From NCBI GenBank assembly GCA_025174535.1, contig JALBUN010000017.1, positions 654,132 through 718,131 of the forward strand: DNA of 64,000 bases. Reading direction: 5' to 3'. Position numbers and translations under genes: made by a program. Below, piece after piece: positions 24,890 through 64,000 of this stretch. Positions within the stretch are counted from its first letter, which is position 1. The number at the start of each line of letters is the position of its first letter. The stretch is from Cantharellus purpuraceus (taxonomy: Eukaryota > Basidiomycota > Agaricomycetes > Cantharellales > Hydnaceae). The notes under the pieces were generated by a model. That model was not told the DNA's origin, searched no databases, and saw nothing but the letters and a program-made list of their open reading frames with translations.

Positions 24890-24954
24890 TTCATCATCAG
24901 GTCTGCTGAATTCTCCTTTGACTGGATGTAGGTAAGTGCTGCTTCATTTGAAGC

Positions 24955-30834: not shown

Positions 30835-31399
30835 GATGCTTGTTCAGAAATACAACAAATACGTATATACAACCTATTTTCCTCAAATTTTATACAATAC
30901 ACTTCAATTCAAACTTATTTTCATATTTCAACATGATTCTCAAATTTTACACAATATACTAGATTAAAACATATTTTGATATTTTGGCATAATTCTCAAA
31001 AATAATTGTTTTTTCCCCATTTAGTGGTGGCAACTCTCTTGAAGGAACATCCAAATATCATTGATTCTTTCTTATACAATACTTGTAACATAATTTGAAC
31101 TATCTTTAATCCCCACCTGGTATTTGTATATCTAAATACCCTATATAATACCAATTATATTCATATATACATTCCTATTATATCCATGTAAATAATTATG
31201 TTCATCTCAACCAAATATCTCATCTTTTAAAGTTTATTAAAATATAGAATATATGTTTATATTTATGAAAATTTCACATATCCGAAATCTTTTAAGATAT
31301 CCAAATTGTAACTCCCTGGCTTTATGTATCATTGAAATCCTGATGTATATCTCCTATACATCAGAATATTGTATACTGACATGATTCCGAACAAGCGTC
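30835..31399. mobile_element. MITE copy 1, precise insertion in gag (TSD TTA)
   Basis: 565 nt, AT-rich, no ORF. Terminal inverted repeats GATGCTTGTTCAGAAAT / ATTCCGAACAAGCGTC. Flanked by TTA at 30832-30834 and 31400-31402; removing the element and one TTA joins the two gag segments in frame. A 3-bp TTA duplication and this type of end fit PIF/Harbinger-derived MITEs. About 98% identical to the copy at 32475-33040. Confidence 0.85.
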
Positions 31400-32332
31400 T
31401 TACCAGTGTTTGACTTCTGGCCAGAGTTGGTGGTGGTCTTCTTATCGGACCCCTTGTTGGACTTGGGGGTCTTGTCTGACAATTTGTCTGACTTGTTGTT
31501 AGCCAAATTTTCATGGGAGACCTCAGATTGATGTTCCCAATAATGGGTGTCCATGGATTGGGCAAGCTTGCAAAGGTTAACCAGAGTATCCAACTTACCA
31601 ACGCATGATATCTCATCCTTGATTGCGGGACAGGAGGCCAATGTAAAATTGGTGTTGGAGTGCAGTGTCACCCCATTGGACCTTCAGAACTAGCTACTGG
31701 AAACTCACAATGTATTTTGCATTCTTGTGATTTTCCTTCATCCAAAGTTGATCAAGTTCATTCTCGGCATCAGCCTTGGGGTTGTAAGGACTGAAATTGG
31801 TCCAGAGTTTGGAGATGAAGTCAGAGTAGTCCTCTGACCATATTGGGTCATCAGAGTTGTCCATGAGTGCTGGTTTGAAGTAGTCCATAGGACATGGCAA
31901 AGGTGACCTGAACCCAATCAGATATAAATGCATTGGGGTGGTCGTGGAAGTTCAACTGGCATTGTACCAGGAATGGTTGGAGTTTGCATGGATCAGAGCC
32001 GTCAAAAGGGTCAGGTTCCCAGACCAAGGTCTGGGACTTAGGAGCTTGTGGGCACAGATGCTGCTGGCGAGCAGGGAGATAGCTGGCACCAGATTTGGGG
32101 AGGGTGGAGTATCGTCTGCTTCATTGACAGCCTCTATATGACCCATTGGTTGTTTGATGACCTCAGGGATGGTGTCGATGCTGGGAGTGAGCACCTTGAT
32201 GGTTTGTGCACATTGGAATTGGTGGTGGATCGTGGCATTGGGGTAGAAGTGAGTGCAGCAGTTTGAATATACTGTTGCTTGTCTTAGTTCACACCATTGC
32301 ACAGAACTCAACCAAGTATATTGGTTGGGCAA
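31400..32332 (-). pseudogene. Gypsy-G Gag N-terminal part
   Basis: Segments 32332-31952 (LTPSIDTIPEVIKQPMGH, NLVPAISLLASSICAH), 31933-31694 (YFKPALMDNSDDPIWSEDY, SDFISKLWTNFSPYNPKAD) and 31671-31400 (SCVGKLDTLVNLCKLAQSMD, HYWEHQSEVSHEN) form a Ty3/gypsy Gag in changing frames. The order and spacing match the better preserved Gag at 60205-61950. Confidence 0.8.
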
Positions 32333-32334
32333 TG

Positions 32335-32471
32335 TGTTGTATAGTGTGGTAGTTAACTAAGTTCTATCTACTACATGTGGACCCACACATGTACTTGGGT
32401 CCACTGGCTTACATAATAACTATACATATGCACCCTATGGGTGCATATATCTACCAAGAAGACAGCATTCC
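32335..32471 (-). repeat. Gypsy-G 5' LTR fragment
   Basis: The minus strand ends ...CACACTATACAACA directly before ttgcccaacc and the gag leader, so an LTR end is likely at 32335. The rest of the LTR is cut at 32472 by MITE copy 2. Contains the palindrome-rich stretch tgtggacccacacatg. Confidence 0.45.
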
Positions 32472-32474
32472 TTA

Positions 32475-33040
32475 TGGCGCTTGTTCAGAAATACAACAAA
32501 TACGTATGTACAACCTATTTTCCTCAAATTTTATACAATACACTTCAATTCAAACTTATTTTCATATTTCAACATGATTCTCAAATTTTACACAATATAC
32601 TAGATTAAAACATATTTTGATATTTTGGCATAATTCTCAAAAATAATTGTTTTTTCCCCATTTAGTGGTGGCAACTCCCTTGAGGGAACATCCAAATATC
32701 ATTGATTCTTTCTTATACAATACTTGTAACATAATTTGAACTATCTTTAATCCCCACCTGGTATTTGTATATCTAAATACCCTATATAATACCAATTATA
32801 TTCATATATACATTCCTATTATATCCATGTAAATAATTATGTTCATCTCAACCAAATGTCTTATCTTTTAAAGTTTATTAAAATATAGAATATATGTTTA
32901 TATTTATGAAAATTTCACACATCCAAAATCTTTTAAGATATCCAAATTGTAACTCCCTGGCTTTATGTATCATTGAAATCCTGATGTATATCTCCTATAC
33001 ATCAGAATATTGTATACTGACATGATTCCGAACAAGCGTC
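32475..33040. mobile_element. MITE copy 2
   Basis: 566 nt, nearly identical to 30835-31399. Left flank TTA (32472-32474); the right flank is disturbed because a solo LTR-A1 starts at 33043. Same terminal inverted repeats (GCGCTTGTTCAGAA / TTCCGAACAAGCGTC). High identity between copies suggests recent mobilisation. Confidence 0.82.
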
Positions 33041-33042
33041 TA

Positions 33043-34495
33043 TGTATGGGAACTGGTTTTCCCTTAAAAGATCTTGTTTAAAGTTCCAAAACTGTACAAT
33101 TTCGCTTCATGGCCTTAAAATATCAGCATATATGTGCTGCTTTCTCTTGATTCAGGGCCATTCAAATATTCTCTATTTTTTCATATTTTTTTTGGGAATT
33201 TTCCATGCAGAAATGAGTCTACAAACTTATTGTTCTGCTGGGCAAAGTTTTGGGACCCACATGGACCCACAAACCTTCCCAGATGTCACCAGCCCCAAAG
33301 TCAGCCGGAGTCACCCGGACTACTGACTCATTTTCAATCACATGACTCATTTTAATCTCCGACTCAATCTGGTCACCACTGCCAGTAAATGCTCAATATC
33401 TTCGCAACCACTGCACCTCCTGACTCCATTTTCAGTGGAGAGTTCAATAGAAGCTGTGCCTACCCATAGCTGTGCTAATCAGCCCGGGAAACGAAGTATT
33501 GACCGAGTTATTTGAGTAATGGTGACTCATGCAATGACTCCTGCCATGACTCATGCTATGACTCCTTCCATGACTCATACCATGACTCCTGTGATTACTC
33601 ATACTATGACTCCTGCTCTGAGTCACACTATGACTCCATCCATGACTCATGCCATGAGTCAGAGCAAATCAAGCAGCTCATTGGCTAGGAAACTTCCACC
33701 CCCTTCTTACATATTCCACTAGCTTCCAGTAGTTTCCATCTATTAATAGGTAGAAGTTTCCAGTAGTATTAGTCAGCTCCTGTAAATACAATATAAAAGG
33801 AGCCCATTCTGCCTCTGAATAAATAACCATTTTTCTACCCCATCATTTGCACATCAGTGTGACTAGAGTGACATACAGTGTCATCCCCTATATCTCAGTA
33901 ACTGTTGATTGTCCAGTTCAAGGGTCGCTTACAGTTGTGTAACTGTATTTGATTGCACTCGAAGTAGTGATTGTCCTGCTTTGGGCGTGAGTGTAGTATC
34001 TACCTTGCATGACTACGAATCTACAGGGTGAGATTGTCTGTCGATAGTCCTGCCATTAGTGCTCTTGTTTAAGTTACTAGTGTGTACTGCCTTTGCAGAG
34101 CATTAGGATCTTGAACTCGTGTGAAGCAGTTGCTAGACTACTTCACACATCGCTGTTACCCGCTTCAGAGTGTCACTGGTTGGACGGTTGGATTCATCTG
34201 CCTACTTCCTCTAGCCTCTAAGTGCATTCCCCTCTTTTTGGAATATCTGGACCCCTAAGCGTCCGTGAACTCTAGACTCTGGAAGTCTTATTATTCCCTA
34301 CTGCTAAGAAATGTATTACCTTTCTGCGTATAGTCTGCATTGACCATTACAACAGATTGTAACCAAAGTACAAACGTTAAATTGTTTCTGGAGTTGTGCT
34401 GCAGTAGGATTTGATATTCTTCTCAGCTGTTCATTCAGGGAATTGTGGTGATTTAGAGTTTGCCCTAACACCATAATTTTGCAGGTTCCAAAACA
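33043..34495 (+). repeat. Solo LTR-A1
   Basis: Complete, 1453 nt, TGTATGGGAACTGG...TTCCAAAACA. Contains the TGA(C/G)TCA array at about 33324-33665 and TATA at 33791-33800. Flanks differ (cgtcta / cctta). It sits between MITE copy 2 and the LTR of gypsy-F. Confidence 0.9.
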
Positions 34496-34586
34496 CCTTA
34501 ATGGAATGCTGCATACATTAATTATGACCATATAACTACATACTATAGTAAGTAAGTACCTTGAGTTCTTACACCCTCCCCTTTTT
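34496..34586 (-). repeat. Gypsy-F 3' LTR fragment and polypurine tract
   Basis: On the minus strand aaaaaggggaggg (34586-34574) is followed by TGTAAGAACTCAAGG, which resembles the TGTAAGTACCCAAGG at 44417. The LTR is cut at 34496 by the solo LTR-A1. Confidence 0.6.
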
Positions 34587-34617
34587 GAATGAGACATGAT
34601 CTCATTCAGTACTTCTT

Positions 34618-36466
34618 AATCATACAGCTCCTTATGAAGCTGTTCTGATGAGTCAGTGTCCATATGGTCATCTTGTTCATATGGTTCCAGAGGGGGATGG
34701 CTCTCAGTCGTCCCTGACATGGTTGCGGTATCCTCATCCACTTGAATGGATGAGGAGGATGCAATTGCTACTGCAGCATCCTGGTCAAGTTCATGATTCA
34801 ATTGACCATGACCTAAACGCTCAGCAAGAGAGCATTTAGCAGCTTTATGAGCTGCTTGGGAGCCTCCTTGAGTCTCCTGCTTTTGCTTACCAACCTTAGC
34901 AGGCTGGTTAAAAGCTGCTCCAGAGGTGATGTCTAATTCAGTATGTTCTTTGGGGGAGCAATTCCCCCAATCATATGCCCCGGTGACTGAAGCATGAAAG
35001 GTGTCACCAAGAGTTGGTCAGAACTTTTGACCACTGGTCAATAATCCCCAGTGGCTGGGATTCTGGAAGATAGTCCAGAGGTTCTTCTTGAATGCAGAAG
35101 AACCCTTCTTGGGAGTGGCCTTTTGCAGCCACATCCAGATGTCCACATCAGACAAGTTCATAGTACCATCCGACTCCTGTTGGATGGCCAGGGGGACCCC
35201 ATTAGGGTTTACTTGCCACCCCTGTATGAGGGCAAGTGTGTCTACTGGTGTGGTCGGTAGAGTGACAATAAGACTCACATTATTAGCGTGAGCCAGCAGA
35301 GTCATTCTCTTGATGACTCTGCACATTGTTACAGCCCATTCTGCAAATGGCATGGCCAAGGCCTTTTTATGGAGTGATATGAACTCCAGAGTGTCCATAT
35401 CAGAGATGTTGAACCAGTCTGCCCTGATAGGGGTGGACTTGGCCAGAGGTTGTGGCAGGTGGCCAGTGACTGCTCTGGGAGGGTCAGCTGCAGTCATGAA
35501 CCATGGTACCCATTTGGGGAATGATTTCCCTGCATTGGCATGCTTGAGAGCATGCCCAAATCATCCCAGTGTTTGCGATAATTTGTATGCTGGGCTTCTT
35601 CCAGCATCTTCAACGCTGGGTCTTTTAATGTATGGCTGGCATCACCAGCCATATATTCCTTTTGAAGCTGATCAATCTCAGCTTTGATTTCAGATAGGGC
35701 AAACTCAAAGAGTTTGCCTGGTTGCTTAGCACCCTTGGGGATGCTAGCCAGGAGGAGACCACAACCATGGTTGTATCCCTCCCAGATTGGGTTGGTGTCA
35801 TCCCAATTTTGACCCTTGAACCCTCAAGGGTTGACCCAAGGCAATTTGCTCGGGAGATCGTCCTCTTTGGTGAGGTCGATTGTTTCCTGTGATGATGAAG
35901 CCGTGGGTTGTGAAGTCATAATGGCAGGCAATGATTTGCCTGCTGTAGCACACAATAGTGATGCTACTGGGGCCAAGCACACTGTTGTGAGCTTGGTTTT
36001 GAATGTAGGAGGTGCTCTATCAGCAGCCTCCTTCAGTGTCTTTAACTTGTTTCTGAGATGAGTTACTTTGGACTTCTCATTGTCAAGAAGTCCTTTGAGT
36101 TCTTGGACCTGTGCAAACAGGTCCAAGTTATCCTTGTACATCTTATCATAGTCTTCATGATAAGGTGTCGCAACATCATCTTCAATGTCATGTAAGTTGC
36201 GGCCACACAACTCTTAATGCTCTTTCCACCAAAGCATTAGAAAGATATAGTTGACCCCCATTTTGGGCCTCAATTAAGTGTGACACATATGCATCGCACT
36301 TGTTGCACCCATGAGGATGATGGATGGCAGTGCCACCATGCCATCTGCCAATTTTCCAGGTCATCTCATCTTGATGACCTCTGATCATATCTGCAGAACT
36401 TGTTGCTGGTGCTGCCACTGTGGGAGTTTGTTCAACTTCCATCATCTCCCTTCTGAGAGATGACAT
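34618..36466 (-). pseudogene. Post-pol ORF of gypsy-F, unknown function (broken)
   Basis: Starts at 36466 (MSSLRREMMEVEQTPTV, good context, with ataaaaggc about 45 nt upstream). Segments: WHGGTAIHHPHGCNKCDAYV (possible metal-binding His/Cys cluster); a coiled-coil stretch YDKMYKDNLDLFAQVQELKG to KVTHLRNKLK; PPTFKTKLTTVCLAPVA; NHGCGLLLASIPKG; VIKRMTLLAHANNVSLIVT; and an acidic tail ending QLHKELYD (34618). Broken by at least two frameshifts and a TGA at about 35822. Partial copies at 54360-55615 and 63420-64000 keep the same protein, so this is a real family. No domain recognised. It is downstream of pol and upstream of the polypurine tract, hence part of the element. Its own promoter is possible. 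Confidence 0.6.
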
Positions 36467-36884
36467 TTTGATGGAGGGGGGTTGTGGTGGTTCAAAGAAG
36501 CACTGCTAGCCTTTTATGGCTGAGCTTGAAAATTCTTTATTGAGGATTTTTCCAGTGACTATGTCACATGGGTGTAATGTGATTAATTATTGCTTACCCC
36601 TTTTGTGCTACTATGAGTCGATGGTGAACTGCTCCCTATGGGAGCAGTTTTTTCTGCCATCAAGCTGCCTGTTGTTATGGTAGCTCTATCCTTATCTAGG
36701 AACCACCATTAACTGAGGTAGTTCCTCCTCCCCTCATTGAGCTACTGTCATTGATGGTAGGTCGTTGTTGCATCCCACTAGAAGCTACCTTTATTCTCGG
36801 TAGCTCCACTTCTCCCCCTTGAGCCCCATTAGACCTTTGGGGCTCTGTCTCTCTAAGAACTACTGTCTATGAGGTAGTTCTTGC

Positions 36885-37519
36885 ACTCAAGTCACCCCTC
36901 AAAGCTCTAAATAATTGTCTAGAGCTTCTAGGTCCTTACACAATGTGTAAGGTTCCCAGGTGACATCTCCCAATGTTCATAGAACTTGAAATTCAAGTTC
37001 TTTATTGCTTATCCATCAATGAGCCACTCTTGCTTGTCATCGTTCCCAACATTGTAAAATGACTTTGCTTCCTGTTTTGGGAATCTCATCTCATCATTCA
37101 GCACATATGGTCAAATGAGACTGATGTGGAATGTAGGCATAATGTGCCTACTAGTCAGTTCTGGTGGCAGTTCCAGTGTCACTGTTGAAGCTTTATTATG
37201 GGCTTCAATTACTTTATAGGGCCTGATATACTTGGGCACTAGTTCTACCCTTAGGTAGAGTCAAGTTTTTCATTGAGAGGTAGACTTTGTCACCTCTCTG
37301 GAAGGTTGAACCTTCCCAACATTTCTTATTGGCATGAAACATCCAAACAACGTGACTTTCTATAATTGCATCATGCACTGCTAGCAGGTTTGTTTGAGCC
37401 TGCTGTGTGAATTGTTTGACACCCTTGAACTTGGTGTCATTGTTCATGGGCATGCCTATTCTAGGCATATACCCATAGTTAAGCTCAAATGGAGTAAACC
37501 CTGTTGTTGAGCTTATGTT
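36885..37519 (-). pseudogene. Gypsy-F integrase C-terminal part
   Basis: Reads NISSTTGFTPFELNYGYMPR, then FTQQAQTNLLAVHDAIIESH, FQRGDKVYLSMKNLTLPKG, then after a frame change LPPELTSRHIMPTFHISLI. This is the segment after the integrase core in Ty3/gypsy Pol. Interrupted from the core by the solo LTR at 37525-38916. Nearly identical to 44568-45100 on the plus strand. Confidence 0.85.
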
Positions 37520-37524
37520 GGAGT

Positions 37525-38916
37525 TGTTTTGGAACCGTGAACTTCAACCTAAACTGTGGTGTTAATCACAATCTAAGTTTAGCCCGAGGATGTATGACCT
37601 TTCAAGGCTAGCAATAAGCTTGAAACTATTTTAACGGAGAACCCAATTAAGAAATTATACTCCGGTGAACAATCACAATCAATATTGCCACAGCAAGTGA
37701 AGCAATAGAGATTTATGCTTGTCACGTGTAGTTCACGCTTTACTGCTGATGCAATGTAAAGTCAAAGATTGACAGGCGTTCAAGGGTTCAGATACTTCAA
37801 AGGGGGAAGTAACCTAGTGCCTTAGTACTGCGGGTTGAGTGGATTAAAGCTAACAATAATCCCTTCAACGTAAAAAGATAGATACGCACTTGAACACTTC
37901 CTTCTGAACAAGCGTATTCACTGTACGTGTTTATCCATGATAGAATCAACAGTCAAGGGATAATCTCGTCTCAAAGAGGTGAGTTAATAGACTGTGTTGT
38001 TGATTTATTGAAATGCCCACAATTGAACCAACTGATCAATAGCAAAGTACGTGTTAACCTGACTAACCTCAGAGTCTCAATTAAACATGCAGTATTCTTG
38101 ACCAATCAATAGCCTAGTACGTATTAACCTGACTAACCTCAGAGTCTCAATTAAACGTGCAAGATTCTTGATTATAACCAATAGCCTGATACGTGATAAT
38201 TTGACTAACCTCAGAGTCTCAATTACACATGTAAGGTTCTTGATCAATGAATAACAATTAATACACTTCAAGTTACTGCTCTGAGTGGGCTTGTAGTGTG
38301 TTAATTACTAATCAGTTACTCTGTATTAACCTCTTCTCCGAGTTTGATTAATATTAGAGCCTGCTGCGCTTGTAATATAATAACTTCTGGCTTCTCCAAG
38401 AGTCAATCAAAGTTAATATACACTAAGAGTAGCTGATATAAGCATGATGCTTATGTGATGATTACTCAATGCTTGAGTAGACACTGCTGTGTGTGTGTGG
38501 TAAAAAGATCTTATTTTTGCACTGCTGTTGCAGCCCTTTTTATATACATGGACTATCTAGCTTATGTAACTAATCAGAGAACATTCCTGGCGCTTAGGGA
38601 AGCCCCTGGAAGGAAAGAGAAGGCTGGGGAACCTTGTGGAAGGTCCAGGAAGGTGTCAGAAGCTTCTGTGGCTGCTTTTGGCTGAAGTGTGCGAACTCTG
38701 ATGATTATGTAATGTGGGCATTGTTCACTCGCGCATGAGTGCTCGTCGGAGTTGAATGACAGATTATATCAGCAACCGACCCCTTGTGTACACTTGTGGG
38801 CTCAAATACACAAAAATGTGAAATATAAGTACATTCAATAGAACATTTGGAATACCTTTAAACTACTAAATAATAGTCCTTATTTGAAGTAGTTTAGAAC
38901 TGCATATACCCCAACA
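37525..38916 (-). repeat. Solo LTR-B inside gypsy-F integrase (TSD ggagt/ggaat)
   Basis: 1392 nt, minus-strand TGTTGGGGTATATGC...GGTTCCAAAACA. Its last ~12 nt match LTR-A, otherwise a different family. Flanked by ggagt (37520-37524) and ggaat (38917-38921), a 5-bp duplication with one change. The uninterrupted target is seen in the inverted copy at 44558-44582. Contains a ~71-nt tandem repeat (about 38040-38250) and a minus-strand TATA (plus ccctttttatata, about 38533). Confidence 0.88.
38035..38250. repeat. Three tandem ~71-nt repeats in LTR-B
   Basis: The block gactaacctcagagtctcaa recurs at 38061, 38131 and 38203, with surrounding aatagcctagtacgt-type sequence diverged between units. Confidence 0.8.
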
Positions 38917-38921
38917 GGAAT

Positions 38922-41900
38922 TTAGTGTGAACTCCACCATTGGACACTTGTGTGCCCAATCTTTCTGATCACTTCGTACAATGGTACAAAGTATTTGGCC
39001 AATGGAACGATTTGCTCGTTCTGTCACTCCATCCATTTGCAGATGGAACACTGTGGACATGAGGAGTTTCACTCCCATTATCTGCTGTAGTTCACACCAA
39101 AAGATAGATGTGAATTTTGAATCTCAATCAGACACGATTGAGTCTGGTACACTGTGAAGGCATATAACTTCTTTAAGGAATAGCCATGCTACTCCTTTCA
39201 CTGTCACATGCATGTTCGTAGGTATTATATGTACCTGTGATGTGAAGTGATCTATGACTACCAGTAGGTAGTCATAGTCATTCAATTTTGGTAATGGACC
39301 CATAAAGTCCATACCTATCACTTGCCAGGGCCGCTCCAGCACTGGCAAGCTATGAAGAAGCCCTGTGGGTTTCTTCGTACTGTCTTTATTCATTTGGCAC
39401 TTCTGGTCATGCCTGGCCACCAGTACAACCGTCAAATGTAATTTGTGGTCTTTAGTTGACCAAAATGGCCAACTACTTGGTGTGCATGGTCAATTATTAT
39501 CTCAACCAGCCTCCTCCCTTCAGGAATGCTGAGTGGGGTATACAGACGACATTGCATTTGTATATATTTTTGGTCCATATTAGACTGTCATGCACACTGA
39601 ATCATGCATGCTCTTTAGGTGCTTCCAGCACCTTAGAAAGGACAGTATCCTTTCTATATGTGCCTTGTACAATCTGCATGAGGTTGATCCCATGCTCGAC
39701 ATGGGATTGCAATGGTGTTCTGTCATCATCTGATGACATCACTCCAACATCCTCTATTTCTTTAGAGGAATTAGAATCATAATTCAATGATTCTGTTTGA
39801 ACATTGAGTGCTTCAGCTTCTAGTGCTCTGTTTTCTTTTTTCTCAAGCAGTCACCTTTGGGTGACTGCTGCTGTCCTGATCTCAATAAACCATTCTGTGG
39901 GGGGCAGTTCTCCTTCAGGGTCGAGACGTACATTTGCATTCATGTAGATGTAGTTGGGATGACTCTCTGTTGGGGAGTCATCAGTATAGTAGCATGATAC
40001 AATCCGCTACTTTGTTCTCTACCCCATCTATATGCAGGGTAGTAAAGTTGAAATGGGATAAGAACTCCCACCACCTAATCTGTCTAGGAGACAGGTTCTT
40101 TTGGGTCTCAAAGTATTTGAGATCCTTGTGGTCAGCTACTAGGACAAACTTTTGTCCTAGTAGCTTATCTTCCCATCTCATTAGGGCTTCAAGCACAGCT
40201 ATAGTCTCGTGCTCATGGGTCTTATAGTGCTGTTATGCAGCACTAAATTTCTTGGATAGAAATCTGGCAGGCCAACAGGTCTGCCAATCTTTTCCTTGCC
40301 CATAGATGGCTCCAACTCCAGTTTTGGAGCTGTCAGTAATAAGCCAAATAGTATTGGGATTATTAACATTGATGGGCTTCAATATTGGAGCCCTACACAC
40401 TAGGAGCTTGATGCTTTTGAAGCATTTCTCCAGCAGCGGTGTCCATAAGAATGGATGATTATTATGAGCACAACCCAATAAAGGGGTTGTGTATGCAGTT
40501 ATATCTGGCATATAGTGTGCCAGATACTGCACTAGTCCAAGAAAATGTTGGACTTCATGGTACAACCTAGGTCATCTCCACTCTCATATTTGCTACATTT
40601 TATCAGTGTCTGCATGCACACCTTGGTCATTTATTAGGTGACCAAGGCAATCCATACTTGTTGAGTATAGATTGATCTTATCCTTGCTCAGGAACATATG
40701 TGCTTTCCTGAGCTCAGTGAACACCATCTCTAGGTGGTGTTTGTGCTCTCGTATAGTATGAGAGTACACAAATATGTTGTCCAGATATACATGGACGAAT
40801 CTTCTGATATATTCTTGAAAGATGGCAGTCATGAGTCCCTGAAATGTTGAGGGGGCATTGCAGTCCCCTTGCTGCATGACTTGACTGACAAATGTCCCCA
40901 AGATGGTTGCAAACACCATCTTGGGTATATCCATCAGTCTGACATATCTGTTTGCATGCCTCAGACGTATCAAGTTTAGATCGATATGTACAGCAGGCAA
41001 CATCGTGGCTGATGTTGTCCTGATTGGGGAAGGGCGTTATGTCCTTCACCGTATTATCATTCTGTTTGTGCAAGTCGAACACAGTGCAGAGCTTCCCATT
41101 TTTTTTTGGGAATGCATAGCATTGGTACAGCCTGCCAGGCTGTAGCCAATAACCACCATTTAGCAGTGGTGTATCACAGAACTTTCTCTGAAAGTTCTGC
41201 TCAGTAGTGCTTTGGACACTTAGGCAAGCAATAATGTATTCACTTGTCAGGATCCACAAGATTAATCTCATGGTTAACTTCCCTAAATGGGGGAAGTTCT
41301 AAGGGTATGCTGCCAAATAGGTCAGTGTACATTTCTTTCCATTGATTTCTCAACTGAGGGATCTGACCAGCTGTGTAAGCAGTTGATCCTTAACGAGATG
41401 AAGCTATTCACATCATGCTCTTATTTGGATCCTCCATTGGGGGGTCCTTTACTGAGTCTAGTCCTTTTTTTAGGAAGGACTGCATTGTGGGTAGCTCATG
41501 TTTAGAGTTACCCCCTTGGTGTCATTTATTCATGCCAATAATCCTTCTTCATATTGAGTTTATACCCCATGACAGGGTACAAAGAGCATCAGTATTATGC
41601 TCTTCATTGGTGGGGACTTCTTCAGTTTCCATCATGATTTGGCCTGGGCCATTAATGTCCAGGCATATTCCTAGCTTTCGTAGGAATGGGGTGCTGAGTA
41701 TTACATCGTAATACTCAATGTTGGTGATATCAAAGTATTCTTCAATGTCCCAACTACCAAACTTTATGGTAGTGTGAGTACCATAATTTATGGTACTCCT
41801 GCTCCCAACACACACTAATTGCAGTGCGATGGGTTGCTCTAGCGTGAAGGTTTTCATACCTGTTACAGGTGTGAATTCAGGGGATATCATTATCCTGTCA

Positions 41901-41960
41901 CTCCCACTGTCTAATAGACAGTGAGCTAGTGTTCCACCAATCTCCCAATACCCAGAGATT
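38922..41960 (-). pseudogene. Gypsy-F Pol: protease, RT, RNase H, integrase core
   Basis: Protease LLDSGSDRIMIS (about 41920-41880) through TPFLRKLGICLDI. RT: GRLYQCYAFPKKNGKL, TVFDLHKQNDNTVKDITPF, QQGDCNAPSTFQGLM, then YLDN where the family has YxDD, so a catalytic aspartate is lost. RNase H: FLGLVQYLAHYMPD, LITDSSKTGVGAIYGQG, THEHETIAVLEALMRWEDK. Integrase: PWQVIGMDFMGPLPKL (first Asp), DSIVSD (second Asp), MDGVTERANRSIGQ (Glu). At least five frameshifts or stops separate the segments. The order and motifs are unambiguous for Ty3/gypsy. Confidence 0.88.
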
Positions 41961-42400
41961 GTTTTATTGTCTATGTGTGGTCTATCTGGTCATGCTGTCA
42001 ACTTCTGTTGGCTCCTATGATTATACATAGGTTTGGCTAATCTGTCAACACTGACAGCAGCTATATGTGGCTGTCATGATTCCCTGCTTGTTGGGAATCT
42101 TGTTGCACTACAGAAATGCACTGCATAGGTGTGCTTCAGTTTCAATAATTGGGTCGAATTCATATCACATTAGAGCAATACATTGGTGTAGCCTCCTTTT
42201 CGGGGATGTCATCTTGGTCATCCCATTCATCAGCCACTTCTATAGCTGGCATTTTTTTGTCTAGATGGTCCTTGGGATCATCCATTGCTTCTTCATGTTC
42301 TCCCTCTATGGGGAGAATCCATCTACATTGTCCTCCACTATGTGTGAGGACATGTCCTTTCAGACTGCAGCCGACCTTACATTGCCCTTTAGTTTGGGGC

Positions 42401-44118
42401 AGCTGGATCACATGTGACCTGTCTGGCCACATTCATAGCACACAATGTTACTAGTAACGTTGTTCGATCAATCACCACTCATGTGTGCTGGTGGCTTCAA
42501 TTGATAATTACCCTTGAAAAGGTAATTGTTGGAATTGGACCTGGAGCTTCCATTACAGGGTTCCAACCTTGACACACTTGCTTGTCATGAGTATGTGTTG
42601 GGAGCCATATACATGCATCCATGGGGTGTGGGGTGACTCCCTGTATTCATCATACCAGTAGTTTAATTGACTACTGGTCTATGGGTTGAGGAGGACGTGT
42701 TAGTCGCATTCTCCAGGCATTGCATACTGTGGTGGTATCATATCGCTTCCTCTATCATTTGAGCAGTTTCGTACAACTGCTCGATACTGCTAAACTCGGC
42801 ATTGAAGCCCTTCTTGAGGACTTCTTGTCTCAGAGGTTTGCGCATTGCAGTTACAAACCTCTTCCTGTACATGTATGCGTCTGGCAGCATTATCACGCAA
42901 CCCACATACTTATCTAGGTCGTTCATTAATTCATGAATGGTCCTTTGACCCTGTATTACAGAGTCAAATTTATTTGATGCATGGTGATGTGTCAGAGTGT
43001 GTAAGAATCTACGTTGCAATCCTTGGATTGCAGTTTCCAGGGTCCAGTCTTGGACTGCCCTATCATAGTGTTCTACATTCCTGTAGAACCATTCCTGGGC
43101 CTCACCTTTGAGGTGAGTGCCTAAGTACAATAGCTGAAACTTTGTACTTGATGGCCCTAGGAGATTATTCATCTTCAGCCATCGTAGCATACCTGCTACA
43201 AAGATCTTGAACTCTTTGAGATCTGTGCCTCCTGCATATTGCTCAGGAGGTGATACTTTAATGCCCACCTTGGCAAGTACAGACTTCTCTGGGTCTGTGT
43301 CTCTATTATTGACTATGGCTACTTGCACCATGCGAGTAATGCTGTTGATAGGATCAATTGTGTCCAATTGATCTGGTATGCCTTGACCTTCTTGGGTCAA
43401 TGGTGCTGATTGTTCCTTGTTATGGGGAACGTCTTCTTGAAGTACCCATTGGGTATCTTGTTGTTCATGGTGGGTGTCTCCTGAAAGGCCTGCCACTTGT
43501 ACATGCTGATAACTGTTCAGTGCATGTCACAACTGTCGATTTAAATTGACAGCCACATTGAGCTCTTGCTGGGGCCACTGCTCTCTAAACATCTGGCTGA
43601 GCTCCTGCTCTGTATGTTTAGCCTTCTGTTCGAGGGCTAATCTATGTTTACAAGAAGCCTCAACTTCTCATTGTTTCCATAGCTTGATCTCTTGATCGAG
43701 CTCCTTTGCCATAGATTGAGGAGTTTCCTCTTCAATCTGGATCAGTAATCCTTGCCTCACTGGGATTACTGGGTCTCTAATTCCCTCCATTGGGGGAATT
43801 TCTGTCTAACTGATCATTCAGTTGGACCCTCTCACCCCAGGGAGGTCCAGACTCTCCAGATTCAGATTCTTGTCAAGAATCTGATCTTTGGCGATGTGAC
43901 TTGCATCGCTCAGAGTTCTCTTGGAGTGATTTTAACATTGTTCCTAGCTCTGAAATTTGCTGCCCCATAGTAGTGGCAGCATACCCTGCTTCAGCAGCCA
44001 TCTTAGCTGCCTGAGCACTAGCTTTGCTAATGCTCTTCATCTCATATTGATTATGCATGAGTTGTTCAGTCAATCTTGTGATTGACCTGTGGGTTACACA
44101 CCGCTCTGTGCTGCACAA
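42401..44118 (-). pseudogene. Gypsy-F Gag with CCHC knuckle
   Basis: N-terminal helix 44118-43873 (MHNQYEMKSISKASAQAAKM). Main capsid ORF 43496-42738 (SPPEQYAGGTDLKEFKIFV, LLYLGTHLKGEAQEWFYRN, TLEGxIQGLQRRF-like region, AQMIEEAI). Zinc knuckle at about 42440-42400 reads CYECGQTGHM, stop, SSC, where the stop (TGA, plus 42408-42410) is at an Arg position. This spacing is C-x2-C-x4-H-x4-C. Frame lost between 43870 and 43500. Confidence 0.85.
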
Positions 44119-44149
44119 TTCCCTAGTAGAAGTATTGCTACTTCTACTT

Positions 44150-44417
44150 GCTACTTGTACTTGTGCTCATATATTGAGCACGTTCCTTTCCTTTAAGAAT
44201 GTTGGAGACAGTGGATGACTGTCTCCTCCTTTCTTCTCTAATCGAAGAACCACTCGATGAAGGGTTCTTGTTTGACAGACGATCTATTGTGCAATTGTCT
44301 GTGCAGTCTCATGATCGTGGCAACTCTCTTCTAGAGTCTTCTTTACGAGAAGTCCCTATGACTTCTCTAGGGATTATACTTATATGTTATAGTAAGTAAG
44401 TACCTTGGGTACTTACA
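44150..44417 (-). repeat. Gypsy-F 5' LTR / leader (boundaries uncertain)
   Basis: The minus strand begins TGTAAGTACCCAAGG at 44417, matching the LTR start at 34573, and runs to the gag region. It is rich in perfect inverted repeats (for example arms around 44206-44225 and 44317-44340). I cannot place the LTR end or primer site. Confidence 0.4.
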
Positions 44418-45229
44418 GAAACTCCTCATGTCCACAGTGTTCCATCCACAAACAGATGGAGCAACGGAATGAGCAAATCGTTCCATTGGCCAAATACTTC
44501 ATACTGTTATATGAAGTGATCAGAAAGATTGGGCACACAAGTGTCCAATGGTGGAGTTCACACTAAACTCCAACATAAGCTCAACAACAGGGTTTACTCC
44601 ATTTGAGCTTAACTATGGGTATATGCCTAGAATAGGCATGCCCATGAACAATGACACCAAGTTCAAGGGTGTCAAACAATTCACACAGCAGGCTCAAACA
44701 AACCTGCTAGCAGTGCATGATGCAATTATAGAAAGTCACGTTGTTTGGATGTTTCATGCCAATAAGAAATGTTGGGAAGGTTCAACCTTCCAGAGAGGTG
44801 ACAAAGTCTACCTCTCAATGAAAAACTTGACTCTACCTAAGGGTAGAACTAGTGCCCAAGTATATCAGGCCCTATAAAGTAATTGAAGCCCATAATAAAG
44901 CTTCAACAGTGACACTGGAACTGCCACCAGAACTGACTAGTAGGCACATTATGCCTACATTCCACATCAGTCTCATTTGACCATATGTGCTGAATGATGA
45001 GATGAGATTCCCAAAACAGGAAGCAAAGTCATTTTACAATGTTGGGAACGATGACAAGCAAGAGTGGCTCATTGATGGATAAGCAATAAAGAACTTGAAT
45101 TTCAAGTTCTATGGACAGTGGGAGATGTCACCTGGGAACCTTACACATTGTGTAAGGACCTAGAAGCTCTAGACAATTATTTAGAGCTTTGAGGGGTGAC
45201 TCGCATGCAAGAACTACCTCATAGACATA
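44418..45229 (+). pseudogene. Inverted gypsy-F integrase fragment
   Basis: The plus strand repeats the gypsy-F integrase region found on the minus strand at about 36880-37519 plus 38922-39070: VEFTLNSNISSTTGFTPFEL, KKCWEGSTFQRGDKVYL and on to the post-pol spacer. About 97% identical by eye. It lacks LTR-B, so it shows the empty insertion site. Both ends are abrupt; the left end abuts the gypsy-F LTR, giving a head-to-head inverted arrangement. Confidence 0.88.
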
Positions 45230-45515: not shown

Positions 45516-46180
45516 CTCCCACTCCAGTGAACTGTCATTCCCAACTTCAAGACAAAATGTTCATGTTTCACCTTCCCAAGGCTTTCCGTCATAATATCCA
45601 CTGTCATCTCATTTGTTTGGCAATATCTGACCTGTAATTGACCGGATGCGACCACTTCTCTGATATAATGGTATCTCACTGCGATATGCTTCATTCACAG
45701 ATGATTTCCAGGATTCTGAATTAACGTGAGAGCTCCCTGGTTGTCACATTGCAGTTCTGTGGGTTCATTCTGTTTGTGTCCAAGTTCATCCAGTAATTGT
45801 CTGAGCCAGATTGCTTCTTGAGTGGCATGACTTGTGGCAATATACTCGGCTTTGGTACTTGACAGTGTGGGTGAAGATTGGATCTTACTGCTCCAGCTAA
45901 CCGCAGCGCCTCCCATCAGAAACACATAGCCTGCAGTTGATTGACGAGTATCCGTATTGCCAGCCCAGTCTGAATCTGAGTATCCATGCAGAAGTTGCAA
46001 GACAAGTCCACCATCCATTGCATTTGAGTTGCACCTCAATATGTGGTCTCTGGTTCCAATGAGGTAACGTACTATGCGTTTTGCTTCAAGCCAGTGCCAT
46101 TGTCCTGGGTTTGTGGTGAATTTGCTTAGTGTTCCCACAGCAAATGCAATATCAGGCCGTGTTCCTAGCATCACCCACAT
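45503..46180 (-). pseudogene. Copia-H RT end and RNase H
   Basis: MLGTRPDIAFAVGTLSKFTT, HWLEAKRIVRYLIGTRD, YSDSDWAGNTDTRQSTAGY, SSTKAEYIATSHATQEAIW, LQCDNQGALTLIQNP, then a TGA (plus 45695-45697) at the expected Arg before MKHIAVRYHYIRE, ending QTNEMTVDIMTESLGK. Apart from that stop the domain is well preserved. Confidence 0.9.
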
Positions 46181-46412
46181 CAATCCTCCAACCACATCAA
46201 TCCTCCAACCACATCAATCCTCCAACCACATCAATCCTCCAACCACATCAATCCTCCAACCACATCAATCCTCCAACCACATCAATCCTCCAACCACATC
46301 AATCCTCCAACCACATCAATCCTCCAACCACATCAATCCTCCAACCACATCAATCCTCCAACCACATCAATCCTCCAACCACATCAATCCTCCAACCACA
46401 TCAATCCTCCAA
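46181..46412. repeat. 17-nt minisatellite, 13 full units, within copia-H pol
   Basis: The unit caatcctccaaccacat is repeated 13 times without a visible change (46181-46401), plus an 11-nt partial unit. The ancestral single unit encodes part of the GGLMW motif of RT/RNase H. The 221-nt expansion is not divisible by three and breaks the reading frame. Confidence 0.95.
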
Positions 46413-46820
46413 TGAGGTTTGCATATGGTGTCTTCTTCATCTCATTTATCTCCACTGACGATGTTGGACAGTCATCCACAGATAATTTGGTGCCGGCAGT
46501 GAGCGGGGTTGGTGCAGGCTTGGCATTGGTGAGTCCAAAGCATGCTCCCAACTCCTCGAGTTTGTGACAGCATGATGGCCCCTTTCTCACAGGTGATTTG
46601 CATGCCAAGGATGTACCTTGCATCTCCAAGGTCCTTCAGTTTGAATTGCTCGCCCAGGTGTGTTTTGTGCATTCGCATGGTTGTGAGGCAGTTTCTGAAC
46701 ATGAGCATATCATCAACATATACCGCCAAGTAGACTATGGCATCTCCATGTTGAAAGACATATATGCAAAAGTCAGAGTTGCAGTGGTGATACCCAATTT
46801 GCTCCAAAGCAGAGTTCAGT
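46413..46820 (-). pseudogene. Copia-H RT, C-terminal half with YVDD
   Basis: LNSALEQIGYHHCNSDFCIY, then VYLAVYVDDMLMF (catalytic YVDD), GEQFKLKDLGDARYILGMQI, then a frame change to GACFGLTNAKPAPTPLT and TPYANLIGGLMW, where the minisatellite begins. Confidence 0.9.
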
Positions 46821-54095: not shown

Positions 54096-54359
54096 CAGAT
54101 ACGTTAGGGGGCAGATGCGGATTGGTACACACTAGGTTCCATTTTTTTATATGATATAGTGGGAAGAGATGAGACGGACACGTTGATAAGAGAATTCAAG
54201 GGAGATCGCAACTCTTTGGCAGTGTGCACTGGCAGCAGCCATCAAGTTGCGTGCACTACTTATATGGGTTGGGTATCATGAGAACCCGTGTAGGCAAGCA
54301 TGCATGTTGCAGGGTCAACCAAAGGTGATAACCCCATGGTGAAATGTGAAGAACAATGA

Positions 54360-54547
54360 TCCAAGGTCATCAAGAAGAGATGACCTGGAAGATCAGCGGA
54401 TGGCTTGGAGGTGCTGCCATCTATCACCCTCACAGGTGCAAAAAGTGTGATGACTATGTCTTGCACTTAATTGAGGCTCAGAAAGGGAGCTGACCATACC
54501 TCTCCACTGCTTCGGTGGAGAGAGCTTTGAGAACCGCATGGCTGCAG
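54360..54547 (+). pseudogene. Gypsy-F post-pol ORF fragment (5' side of solo LTR-C)
   Basis: Matches the His/Cys part of the post-pol ORF (gatgacctggaagatc; the HPHGCNKC region appears here as HPHRCKKCDDYVLHLIEA). Interrupted by LTR-C with TSD tgcag and continues at 55141. Confidence 0.75.
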
Positions 54548-55140: not shown

Positions 55141-55615
55141 TGCAGTTGATTCCTGACATTGAAGATGATGTCACTAGTGCTCATCATAAGGATTATGATA
55201 GGCTGTTCAAGGACAACTGGAACCTGTTCATACAGGTTCAAGAACTTGAAGGATTTCTTGAACAGGAGAAATCCAAGGTAACTCATCTGAAGGATGGGTT
55301 AAAATTATTCAAGGAGGCTGCTGCTAAAGTGCCTCCTACATTCAAGACCAAGCTCACAACAGTGCTCTTGGCCCCAGTAGCACTGTCATCATGCACTATG
55401 GCAGGCAAACCGTTGCCTGCCATTAAATCATCTCAACCTGTGGCATCATCATCATGGGAAATGATCAACCTTACTAAAGAGGACAATCACCTGAGCGAAC
55501 CACCTCAGATTGACCCTTGAGAACTTGAGGGTCAAGAATGGGACAATACAGACCTGATATGGGAGGATTACAACCATGATTGTGGTCTCCTCCTGGCTAG
55601 CATCCCCAAGGGTGC
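55141..55615 (+). pseudogene. Gypsy-F post-pol ORF fragment (coiled-coil part)
   Basis: LIPDIEDDVTSAHHKDYDRL, LFIQVQELEGFLEQEKSK, PPTFKTKLTTVLLAPVA, TKEDNHLSEPPQIDP then a TGA, then NHDCGLLLASIPKG. Same protein as 36210-35740 on the minus strand, with different codons in several hairpin arms. Cut at 55616 by LTR-A2. Confidence 0.75.
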
Positions 55616-57045
55616 TGTTTTGGAACCCATAAAATTATGGTGTTAGGGCAAACTCTAAATCACCACAATTCCGTGAATGAACAGCTGAGAAGAATATCAA
55701 ACCCTGCTGCAGCACAACTCCAGAAACAATTTAACATTTGTACTTTGGTTACAATCCTTTGTATTGGTCAATGCAGACTATATGCAGAAAGGTAATACAT
55801 TTCTTAGCAGCAAGAAATGAATAAGACTTCCAGAGTCTAGAGTTCACGGACGCTTAGGGGTCCAGATATTCCAAAAAGAGGGGAATGCACTTAGAGGCTA
55901 AAGGAAGTAGGTGGATGAATCCAACCGTCCAACCAGTGGCACTCAGAAGCGGGTAACAGCGATGTGTGAAGTAGTCTAGCAACTGCTTCACACGAGTTCA
56001 AGATTCTAATGCTCTGCAAAGGCAGTACACACTAGTAACTTAAACAAGAGCACTAATGGCAGGACTATCGACAGACAATCTCACCCTGTAGATTTGTAGT
56101 CACGTGAGGCAGATACTACACTCACACCCAAAGCAGGAATATCACTACTTCGAGTGCAATCAAGTACAGTTACACAACTGTAAAAGATCCTTGAACTGGT
56201 AATCAACAGTTACTGAGATAGAGGATGACACTGTATGTCACTCTAGTCACACTGGTGTGCAGAAGATGGGTAGAATATGATGGATATGTTTCTATTTCAG
56301 AGGCAGAATGGCCTCCTTATATATTGTATTTACAGGGGCTGACTAATGCTTCTGGAATATTCTACCTATTAATAGATGGAAGCTACTGGAAGGTTGTGGA
56401 AGGTGGAAGAAAGGGGTAGAATATTCCAAGCCAATCACAGGTTCTGATCACTGCATTAACACTGATCAGGAGCTGAATAATGGTTCTGGAAAGTTCTATC
56501 TAATAATAGAAGGAAACAGCTAGAATGTTATGGAAAGGGTAGAATATTCCAAGGCAATCACCTGATTTGATCATCCATCAGCTGATCTGATCCCTGAACT
56601 AGGCACTGATCAGGCAAAAGAAGGGTGTCCACCCTGTTTTCTGCACTGGTTTGGACAGCCATGGATAGCCACATCTCAGGTGATGATCTCCATGGAAAAT
56701 GGTGCCCTGAGAGGCTGTGGTTGTCAAGTTAGAGAATATTTATTGATCAGAGACATCTGAGCTTGAATTCAGGCCAAATGCCTGGTCCAAAGGTGGAGAG
56801 CCGGCTGTGTGAAGGTTTGTGGGTGCCTATGGGTCCACAACTGTAGCACAGCAGAAATAAATGATTCTGGGCCGAGTTCTGCATGGAATATTCCCAGAAA
56901 AATATGGAAAAATAGAGAATATTTGAATAAGTCCATTCCAGGTACAAGCACCAACTATATGCTGATATTTAGGAATGGAAAAGCAATGTATAGCACATTG
57001 GTGCTGCATAAATAGGATTTGATAGGAAAAGGTGGTCCCCATACA
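55616..57045 (-). repeat. Solo LTR-A2 (minus)
   Basis: Minus-strand TGTATGGGGACCACC...GGTTCCAAAACA, 1430 nt. Longer than the gypsy-A LTR by about 120 nt because of a diverged internal duplication at about 56425-56545 (repeated ggaaagttctatctaataatag-type block). Flanks ggtgc / tcagt do not match. Confidence 0.88.
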
Positions 57046-63419: not shown

Positions 63420-64000
63420 TACTGTAACTCATTTCAAGGATGAGTTAAAATCACTTAGGGAGGCTGCAACAAAGGCACCTCCTATGTTCAAAACCAAGCT
63501 CACAACAATGTGCTTGGCCCCAGTAGCACCTTCACCACATGCTATGGCAGGCAAATCATTGCCTGCCACCATTCCCTCACTACCCATGACCTCATCATCA
63601 CAGGAAATAATTGTCCTCACCAAGGAGAATGATCATCTGGGCAAACTGCCTCAGATTGACCCTCAAGGTTCAAAAGTCAAGATTGGGATGATACCAACCA
63701 CAAATGTGGGGAAGTCCTTCCCCAACTGGGCACTGTGGTTTCTAACTGCAGCTGACCTCCCCAGAATGGTCACAGGCCACTTGCCTCAACCTCTGGGCAA
63801 GTCCATCCCTATTAGGGTGGACTGGTTTGATATTTGTGATACAGACTCTACTGAGTTCATATCATTGCATAAAATGGCATTGGCCACTCCATTCACAGAA
63901 TGAACAGTGCCAATGTGCAGAGTCATTAAAAGAATGACTCTGCTGGCTCATGCTGACAATGTGAGTCTTATAGTCACTCTACCAACTATGCTGGTAGATA
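63420..64000 (+). pseudogene. Gypsy-F post-pol ORF fragment, runs off the right edge
   Basis: PPMFKTKLTTMCLAPVAPS, ENDHLGKLPQIDPQGSK, NVGKSFPNWALWFLTAADL, HLPQPLGKSIPIRVDWFDIC, then a TGA at 63901-63903 (Trp in the other copy, TGG to TGA) and CRVIKRMTLLAHADNVSL. This copy keeps CAA (Gln) where the other two have TGA in the IDP/VNP region. Confidence 0.78.

What the first reader, a model, noticed from the sequence alone, without database searches (positions are those of the whole stretch)
34600..45200. Gypsy-F is saturated with perfect short inverted repeats
Reading gypsy-F, I find a near-continuous series of perfect stem-loops in coding sequence. Examples (arm / arm): 40134-40148 / 40151-40165 (15 bp, 2-nt loop); 40897-40907 / 40915-40925 (11 bp); 36102-36112 / 36117-36127 (11 bp, 4-nt loop); 34731-34740 / 34747-34756 (10 bp); 35296-35305 / 35313-35322 (10 bp); 36627-36636 / 36640-36649 (10 bp); 36981-36990 / 36992-37001 (10 bp); 36934-36942 / 36944-36952 (9 bp); 40621-40629 / 40639-40647 (9 bp); 35698-35706 / 35710-35718 (9 bp); 35631-35639 / 35645-35653 (9 bp); 36855-36863 / 36874-36882 (9 bp); 39321-39328 / 39342-39349 (8 bp); 39687-39694 / 39700-39707 (8 bp); 37300-37307 / 37309-37316 (8 bp). 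Between 36600 and 37320 there are about ten in 720 nt. I do not see this in gypsy-A, gypsy-G or copia-H coding regions, nor in the LTR-B inserted at 37525-38916. The transcript would be a chain of hairpins. Possible meanings: genome-scale ordered RNA structure, as in some RNA viruses, for packaging or escape from RNA silencing; or a reverse transcriptase that converts imperfect palindromes to perfect ones by template switching. I know of no such description for a fungal LTR element.
Basis: seen in the sequence. Interest (0 to 1): 0.92.

Follow-up and report, generated by a model that had tools for sequence, protein, structure and literature searches.

The report
Retrotransposon folded into hairpin chain
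A family of old fungal jumping genes carries, along its whole length, a near-continuous row of tiny perfect hairpins that selection seems to have kept while the element was active, giving it more predicted RNA folding than the two tightly folded RNA phages it was compared with.

Summary
All 15 listed inverted repeats are exact. Gypsy-F carries 6-7 perfect repeats per kb; dinucleotide shuffles give 0.05-0.55. The inserted LTR-B, the gypsy-A ORF and five other gypsy loci sit near background. It is a family trait: 42 loci of one genome (several overlapping) show 3.7-10.2 per kb. Pooled copies give 63 recurrent hairpins in 3.7 kb, covering 37-45% of it. LTR and 5' UTR have them too. Predicted folding excess (MFED) is 32-44% on the coding strand; phages MS2 and Qbeta give 28-29%, other gypsies 2.5-10%.

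The stems look selected. Between two subfamilies they differ at 3.8% of sites, loops at 10.6%, linkers at 7.8%. Changes private to one copy show no such deficit, so the constraint acted while the element was alive.

Best explanation: genome-scale ordered folding of the element's nucleic acid, most likely its RNA. Shielding from RNA silencing is my leading, untested guess at its purpose. Palindrome making by the reverse transcriptase is not excluded as origin. No DNA from other species could be examined.

The parts
34496..37524 (-). 3' part of the gypsy-F copy: end of integrase, extra ORF (ORF2) region; 21 perfect inverted repeats
38917..44371 (-). gag-pol part of gypsy-F (integrase start, RNase H, RT, protease, gag); 35 perfect inverted repeats
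32280..32474 (-). LTR part of gypsy-F (inferred from copies), separated by later insertion; 3 perfect inverted repeats
34496..34574 (-). other part of the terminal sequence of gypsy-F at the break point (LTR, inferred)
44418..45227 (+). second, inverted fragment of the same family (integrase region); 5 perfect inverted repeats
42741..43526 (-). gag (Ty3 capsid-like, PF19259)
41552..41989 (-). aspartyl protease (RVP_2)
40596..41036 (-). reverse transcriptase, C-terminal part (RVT_1 profile positions 111-203 of 205)
40236..40571 (-). RNase H (RT_RNaseH_2)
39127..39489 (-). integrase core piece (rve, below cut-off)
35021..35560 (-). piece of ORF2, a protein without Pfam match but with 10 database homologues at 59-67% identity
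40134..40165 (.). longest hairpin, 15-bp arms, 2-nt loop
36102..36127 (.). hairpin, 11-bp arms; the pair 36106/36123 is G-C in gypsy-F and A-T in subfamily 2
36070..36093 (.). hairpin; the pair 36073/36090 is C-G in gypsy-F and T-A in subfamily 2
40621..40647 (.). hairpin inside RT coding sequence, 9-bp arms here; perfect over 8 or more pairs in 18 of 19 rows
32377..32404 (.). LTR hairpin, 9-bp arms, found in other copies' terminal sequence
32426..32448 (.). LTR hairpin, 10-bp arms, found in other copies' terminal sequence
54356..54532 (+). fragment of a related subfamily (78.5% to gypsy-F)
55154..55616 (+). fragment of a related subfamily (77.4% to gypsy-F), hairpin-rich
63424..63983 (+). fragment of another related subfamily (78-81%), hairpin-rich

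Best explanation
Gypsy-F belongs to a Ty3/gypsy LTR retrotransposon family whose whole length (LTR, 5' UTR, gag-pol, ORF2) evolved into a chain of short hairpins. Stems are mostly 8-13 uninterrupted Watson-Crick pairs, loops 0-11 nt, spans near 24 nt, recurring about every 50-65 nt. Shown here: the chain is present in every family locus tested, is far beyond chance, and its stems were constrained while the element was active. Inferred: the selected object is folded nucleic acid, most likely the transcript. The transcript would be largely self-paired but never in a duplex of about 20 bp. My preferred purpose, also inferred, is concealment from RNA silencing: stems too short for Dicer, few open target sites for Argonaute, and sense and antisense strands that each fold on themselves rather than anneal.
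For: Density: 42 family loci (several overlapping, window copy and its duplicate included) at 3.7-10.2 perfect repeats/kb against 0.04-0.56 shuffled; five other gypsy loci at 0-0.55. Pooled copies: 30 and 33 recurrent centres in 1601 and 2101 bp. Codon shuffle: 1.75 expected, 23 seen. MFED, coding strand: 32-36% for the window copy, 36-44% for ten other loci, 41% for one subfamily-2 locus; MS2 27.6%, Qbeta 28.9%, four other gypsy loci 2.5-6.8%, gypsy-A 9.7%. Selection: stems differ between subfamilies at 26 of 683 sites, loops 18 of 170, linkers 83 of 1067, and 0 of 5000 circular shifts were as low. Copy-private changes are not lower in stems (0.178 and 0.177 per column; linkers 0.158 and 0.135; loops 0.129 and 0.142), while shared variants are (0.018 and 0.021 against 0.026 and 0.037 in linkers). 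177 of 185 testable stem pairs stay Watson-Crick in subfamily 2. Two stem pairs are fully compensated. Host: RdRP genes and Piwi-domain pieces present. GORS transcripts are poorly sensed by vertebrate cells (PMC3950689, abstract seen), an analogy only.
Against: No strand signature of the mRNA. G.T against A.C one-mismatch sites lean to the non-coding strand (57:21 over all sites; 15:5 at majority level, p=0.08, and p=0.20 and 0.17 at other thresholds; 3:3 among changed pairs). Energy shows no consistent strand difference, though MS2 and Qbeta show no wobble excess either (3:4 and 2:2). The stem deficit is uneven: it is clear in 35.7-36.2 and 36.6-37.0 kb but nearly absent in 36.26-36.59 kb (7 of 109 against 11 of 140) and absent in the integrase piece when only L054 and L055 are used (10 of 239 against 26 of 528). 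The deficit of shared variants within the family is weak (p=0.078 and 0.060). Compensation is rare (2 of 14). Stems lack the bulges and wobbles usual in selected RNA folds (recalled). Piwi pieces contain in-frame stops, so introns or pseudogenes, and Dicer was not searched. There are no expression, probing or small-RNA data; silencing escape is a guess.
Confidence: 0.6

Rival explanations
1. Mutational origin: the element's reverse transcriptase folds its nascent strand back on itself at weak palindromes and copies it, so imperfect hairpins become perfect. The chain is a by-product of replication, tolerated where the protein allows.
For: Stems are single perfect blocks with abrupt ends (2 of 34 continue), are Watson-Crick on both strands, occur in coding and non-coding parts, tend to avoid the codon register in which wobble positions face each other (17, 13, 6; p about 0.08 by a hand chi-square), and single mismatches lean to G.T on the non-coding strand, the nascent first-strand cDNA (57:21).
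Against: Two subfamilies share hairpins at the same places (24 of 26) rather than turning over. Stems diverge less than loops and linkers, whereas by my reasoning arm-to-arm conversion would not lower the number of changed sites. Compensated pairs are few (2 of 14). Five other gypsy loci, with RT of the same order, lack the feature.
Confidence: 0.2
2. Selected folding for packaging, compaction or dimerisation of the genomic RNA in virus-like particles, as in the compact genomes of ssRNA phages, rather than for hiding from silencing.
For: MFED is above that of MS2 and Qbeta; structure covers LTR, UTR and coding parts alike; the constraint on stems fits equally.
Against: Nothing ties the hairpins to Gag; no common loop or motif was tested for. 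Ty3 and Ty1 RNAs are packaged with up to 30% stable, highly structured regions (PMC11381356, abstract and passages seen), and I saw no such chain described there.
Confidence: 0.25
3. DNA-level role: the hairpins act in single-stranded cDNA or as cruciforms in double-stranded DNA (for example for integration, recombination control or chromatin).
For: Stems are almost purely Watson-Crick and about equally stable on both strands, as a DNA-level palindrome would be; some loops are 0-1 nt.
Against: Such small cruciforms are not expected to extrude from duplex DNA without strong supercoiling (recalled). MS2 and Qbeta show that true RNA folds can also be near strand-symmetric.
Confidence: 0.1
4. Chance, base composition, codon use or an assembly artefact.
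For: None of weight; the assembly does repeat the end of contig C17 at the start of C49.
Against: Dinucleotide and codon shuffles give about 25 and 13 times fewer repeats; the hairpins are shared by many loci that differ from the window copy by about 10%.
Confidence: 0.01

Closest known systems
[quoted passage not shown]
   Same: Hundreds of sequential, mostly unbranched stem-loops over coding sequence; raised MFED; no very long duplexes; paired sites less variable than unpaired sites.
   Different: Here the carrier is a fungal LTR retrotransposon; MFED is 32-44% against 15% for SARS-CoV-2 and 23.4% as the highest given there; stems are perfect blocks; and pairings are homologous between subfamilies (24 of 26), whereas SARS-CoV and SARS-CoV-2 mostly use non-homologous pairings.
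Compactly folded ssRNA phages MS2 and Qbeta (fetched)
   Same: Very high predicted folding on both strands (MFED 22-29%).
   Different: Only 0.84 and 1.43 perfect repeats per kb against 6-15 here; different life cycle.
Yeast Ty3 and Ty1 genomic RNA structures by SHAPE (PMC11381356, abstract and passages seen)
   Same: LTR retrotransposon RNA genomes with dispersed stable regions; Ty3 is of the same superfamily.
   Different: There stable, highly structured regions make up to 30% of the genome; I saw no chain of perfect hairpins described in what I read.
Quasi-palindrome correction by polymerase template switching (recalled)
   Same: Would make short perfect inverted repeats with small loops.
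   Different: Known to me as scattered mutations, not as a genome-long conserved array.

Membership tests
Ty3/gypsy LTR retrotransposon | gag and pol domains in the order PR-RT-RH-IN | tested here: met
   PF19259, RVP_2, RVT_1 and RT_RNaseH_2 over their cut-offs; rve below its cut-off (E=0.02), but the piece is 46% identical to the ORF after RT in another gypsy locus; order by coordinates
Ty3/gypsy LTR retrotransposon | long terminal repeats | tested here: inconclusive
   The same terminal sequence is found next to gag in L051 and next to the 3' part in other copies; no complete LTR pair was shown and target-site duplications were not looked for
Genome-scale ordered RNA structure | folding energy well above dinucleotide-preserving shuffles over the whole genome | tested here: met
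   MFED 32-44% on the coding strand over the window copy, ten other loci and one subfamily-2 locus; four other gypsy loci 2.5-6.8%
Genome-scale ordered RNA structure | many local stem-loops rather than a few elements | tested here: met
   63 recurrent centres in 3.7 kb
Genome-scale ordered RNA structure | constraint on paired sites | tested here: met
   3.8% against 10.6% and 7.8%; copy-private changes not reduced; uneven between pieces
Genome-scale ordered RNA structure | the folded molecule is the genomic RNA in the cell | not testable with these tools
   No transcripts or probing data; strand tests indecisive
Genome-scale ordered RNA structure | link to persistence or reduced sensing of the RNA | not testable with these tools
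   Only the presence of RdRP and Piwi-domain sequence was checked
Template-switch palindrome correction | arms kept complementary by copying, so that about half of the changes or more are compensated | tested here: not met
   2 of 14 changed stem pairs compensated; this tests upkeep, not origin

The most novel reading that the evidence does not exclude
A fungal LTR retrotransposon lineage rebuilt its whole genome, coding and non-coding, into a chain of hairpins of about one helical turn, so that both strands fold on themselves, never form duplex long enough for Dicer and leave few open targets for Argonaute: a sequence-encoded stealth coat against RNA silencing, and the densest genome-scale folding in this comparison.
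Probability: 0.3. Interest if true: 0.92.

Novelty: new variant of a known kind. Interest (0 to 1): 0.8.

Why it matters
In the papers I saw, genome-scale RNA folding is discussed for positive-strand RNA viruses. A stronger form in a retrotransposon that lived inside a genome with RNA-silencing genes would make it testable whether folding is a general defence of selfish RNAs against silencing. The many decayed copies act as a natural control: they separate selection during active life from neutral decay afterwards, which alignments of living viruses do not offer.

Tried and rejected
One search was a mistake: loci from minus-strand matches were not reverse-complemented, which made half the copies look hairpin-free. 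One search replaced it, and no conclusion rests.

Wobble test for the selected strand: I hoped it would name the folded molecule. Counts lean to the non-coding strand, but MS2 and Qbeta, whose RNA folds are real, show no wobble excess by a like count, so I treat the test as undecided.

Covariation over all stems against slid partners: 5 doubly changed Watson-Crick cells (3 sites) against 0.7 expected, but unchanged cells were about as many as in the control (814 against 796). Each copy's post-insertion decay swamps the signal there, so I moved to states shared within each subfamily.

Rows and columns dropped before counts: the duplicates or near-duplicates L004, L024, L019, L020, L021 and L035 and in most pieces; searches dropped only L004 and L024. 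In the two integrase pieces (38960-39890), L005, L034 and L035 were all eligible, and L005 and L035 overlap on the same DNA; leaving those two pieces out, stems differ at 20 of 490 and the rest at 75 of 774 (hand sums). CpG-type columns were left out of all substitution counts, and columns with under 70% agreement out. One search used six of the eight pieces and hairpins seen in two or more copies. One search used ten loci that I picked.

Searches for relatives' DNA in viral contigs and prokaryote genomes found none. The notion that hairpins are small inserted palindromes was dropped because several lie inside conserved protein domains without lengthening them (judged by eye).
Full report
OBSERVATION. 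All 15 of 15 listed inverted repeats are exact. With arm >=8 and loop <=15, gypsy-F has 21 in 34496-37524 (6.9/kb) and 35 in 38917-44371 (6.4/kb). The LTR-B inserted in it has 1 (0.7/kb), the gypsy-A ORF 2 (0.27/kb) and window 1-31000 17 (0.55/kb). Shuffles that keep dinucleotides give means of 0.05-0.55 per kb in the 34-45 kb bins (20 per bin). Shuffling synonymous codons in seven stop-free pieces (gag, PR, RT, RH, IN, two ORF2 pieces) gives a summed mean of 1.75 against 23 observed; two of five control ORFs, copies of one another, show a small excess (3 each against 0.3 and 0.2). Between 36600 and 37320 I count seven, not about ten.

ANATOMY. The coding strand is the minus strand. Gag (Ty3 capsid-like), protease, RT, RNase H and an integrase piece are found in order; tblastn with ORFs of other gypsy loci of the genome agrees and shows frame breaks. 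A further protein region (ORF2, 34.6-36.5 kb) has no Pfam match in the pieces tested, but its longest piece has 10 database homologues at 59-67% identity. Gag has 238 homologues at E<=0.001; of the 120 listed, 119 carry only jgi or ena as source, which I take to be mostly metagenomes, and one is from Gautieria morchelliformis. The host is therefore probably a basidiomycete (inference). An LTR part is split off at 32280-32474, 34496-34574 is its other part, and 44418-45227 is a second, inverted fragment. Stretches at 54.36-54.53, 55.15-55.62 and 63.42-63.98 kb are fragments of related subfamilies.

A FAMILY TRAIT. The window lies in a 40.15-Mb genome. DNA searches gave 55, 56 and 44 matching pieces for three parts of the element, nearly all 79-94% identical apart from the window copy and its duplicate; only the 40 best candidates were scored each time, so these are lower bounds. 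The duplicate (C49, 99.8-99.9%) repeats the end of contig C17. All 42 loci (several overlap, and up to 1500 bases of flank on each side are included) hold 3.7-10.2 repeats/kb against 0.04-0.56 shuffled, and L043 (80-88% DNA identity) holds 4.7. Five gypsy loci of other lineages hold 0-0.55. Against the gypsy-F RT piece, L044-L046 are 42-45% identical in amino acids.

GEOMETRY. In the aligned copies hairpins sit at the same places: 86% and 87% of stem cells are Watson-Crick over all copies of the two pieces. About two thirds of the differences from the window copy fall in CpG-type columns (1647 of 2462 and 1982 of 3008), and so do most unpaired stem cells (472 of 629 and 430 of 652). So decay of former CpG sites broke many stems after insertion. 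Pooling distinct copies, 30 centres recur in 1601 bp and 33 in 2101 bp; arms are 8-13 bp (one 15), loops 0-11 nt, mean span 24 nt, and hairpins cover 45% and 37% of the two stretches. With CpG-type columns as wildcards, 34 stems of 9 bp or more remain (Markov control means 0.45 and 0.75); 31 of 34 have arms of 9-11 bp, the others 12, 13 and 15, and only 2 continue for three or more pairs past their first mismatch. The inferred LTR and 5' UTR of L051 hold seven such hairpins in 570 nt.

SELECTION. I compared states shared by gypsy-F copies with states shared by subfamily-2 copies (L054, L055, L057, L058, two to four per piece), leaving out CpG-type columns. Stem columns differ at 26 of 683 (3.8%), loops at 18 of 170 (10.6%), linkers at 83 of 1067 (7.8%); none of 5000 circular shifts of the stem mask was as low (Fisher 1.7e-4 for stems against the rest). 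The effect is uneven: 11 of 155 against 36 of 242 in 35.69-36.24 kb, 1 of 153 against 18 of 169 in 36.60-37.01 kb, but 7 of 109 against 11 of 140 in 36.26-36.59 kb and 6 of 193 against 26 of 463 in the integrase pieces. The control is the set of changes private to one copy, which arose after insertion. They are not lower in stems (0.178 per column against 0.158 in linkers and 0.129 in loops; 0.177 against 0.135 and 0.142). Variants shared by three or more copies are lower in stems (0.018 against 0.026 and 0.050; 0.021 against 0.037 and 0.036; p=0.078 and 0.060 by shifts). So the constraint acted while the element copied itself. In six of the pieces 177 of 185 testable stem pairs are still Watson-Crick in subfamily 2, and 24 of 26 hairpins keep at least 80% of their testable pairs. 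Two of 14 changed pairs are fully compensated; a third lineage (L056) has G.T at both.

WHICH MOLECULE. Undecided. One-mismatch stems lean to G.T on the non-coding strand (57 to 21 sites; 15 to 5 at majority level, p=0.08), changed pairs are 3 to 3, and local energies differ clearly between strands only in the 39.9-42.0 kb piece (-1.45, SE 0.52 kcal per 100 nt, favouring the non-coding strand). MS2 and Qbeta give 3:4 and 2:2 on a like count, so this count does not detect a true RNA fold. Copy-private mutation is roughly strand-symmetric (C>T 48 and 49, G>A 49 and 61).

MECHANISM. Shown: a hairpin chain over the whole element, with stems constrained in its active life. Inferred: that it is folded RNA. 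Inferred further: that folding hides the RNA from silencing, since the stems are short of Dicer size (recalled), both strands fold, and the host has RdRP genes at several loci and Piwi-domain pieces, some with in-frame stops (Dicer not searched). Packaging is the nearest rival within selection. Palindrome making by the reverse transcriptase may have supplied the raw material: the perfect, unbroken stems look like that, and the codon registers (17, 13, 6) fit either view.

NOVELTY. Ten literature searches (four of them returned no paper) listed no LTR retrotransposon with such a chain; I read listings, one abstract (PMC3950689), and abstract plus passages of two papers. Subscription papers are mostly outside that library. 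Ty3 and Ty1 RNAs have been mapped by SHAPE (PMC11381356), with up to 30% stable, highly structured regions. I file the find as a new variant of a known kind: genome-scale ordered structure in a new kind of carrier and in a more extreme, block-like form.

LIMITS. One genome only; the window copy has frame breaks and I did not look for an intact one; no transcript, probing or small-RNA data; relatives' DNA was out of reach.

Noticed in passing
window pieces at 35.6-37.2, 39.9-42.0, 42.7-44.4, 55.1-55.6 and 63.4-64.0 kb; G000:C49 from about 12.6 to 41.1 kb: Every piece of the end of contig C17 that I searched is repeated at 99.8-100% near the start of contig C49 in the same order: overlapping contig ends or a recent segmental duplication.
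   Followed up: partly
46121-46460: A 17-bp unit repeated in tandem lies beside reading frames that look copia-like to my eye (names recalled).
   Followed up: no
34619-36500: ORF2, a protein region after the integrase with no Pfam match in the pieces tested, conserved at 59-67% in 10 database homologues; its role in the element is unknown.
   Followed up: partly
17202-18623 and 52645-53940: Two ORFs in a 3.2-kb repeat (95.7% identical) have 3 perfect inverted repeats each against 0.3 and 0.2 by codon shuffle: a small excess outside the gypsy-F family.
   Followed up: no
2971-4168 and 13137-14334: A 1.2-kb direct repeat at 99.4% flanks the gypsy-A ORF, so this element looks young while gypsy-F copies look old.
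   Followed up: no
1534-2970, 23463-24890, 33043-34495, 58746-60197: A roughly 1.45-kb repeat present at least four times in the window at 94-97% identity; one copy lies in the break of the gypsy-F terminal sequence.
   Followed up: no
30838-31400 and 32479-33041: A 563-bp direct repeat at 98.8%, probably the LTR pair of another inserted element, each with the same 10-bp-arm palindrome.
   Followed up: no
whole gypsy-F family: About two thirds of the differences between copies lie at TG/CA or CG columns on both strands, as expected from CpG methylation and decay rather than classic RIP (the cause is inferred).
   Followed up: partly
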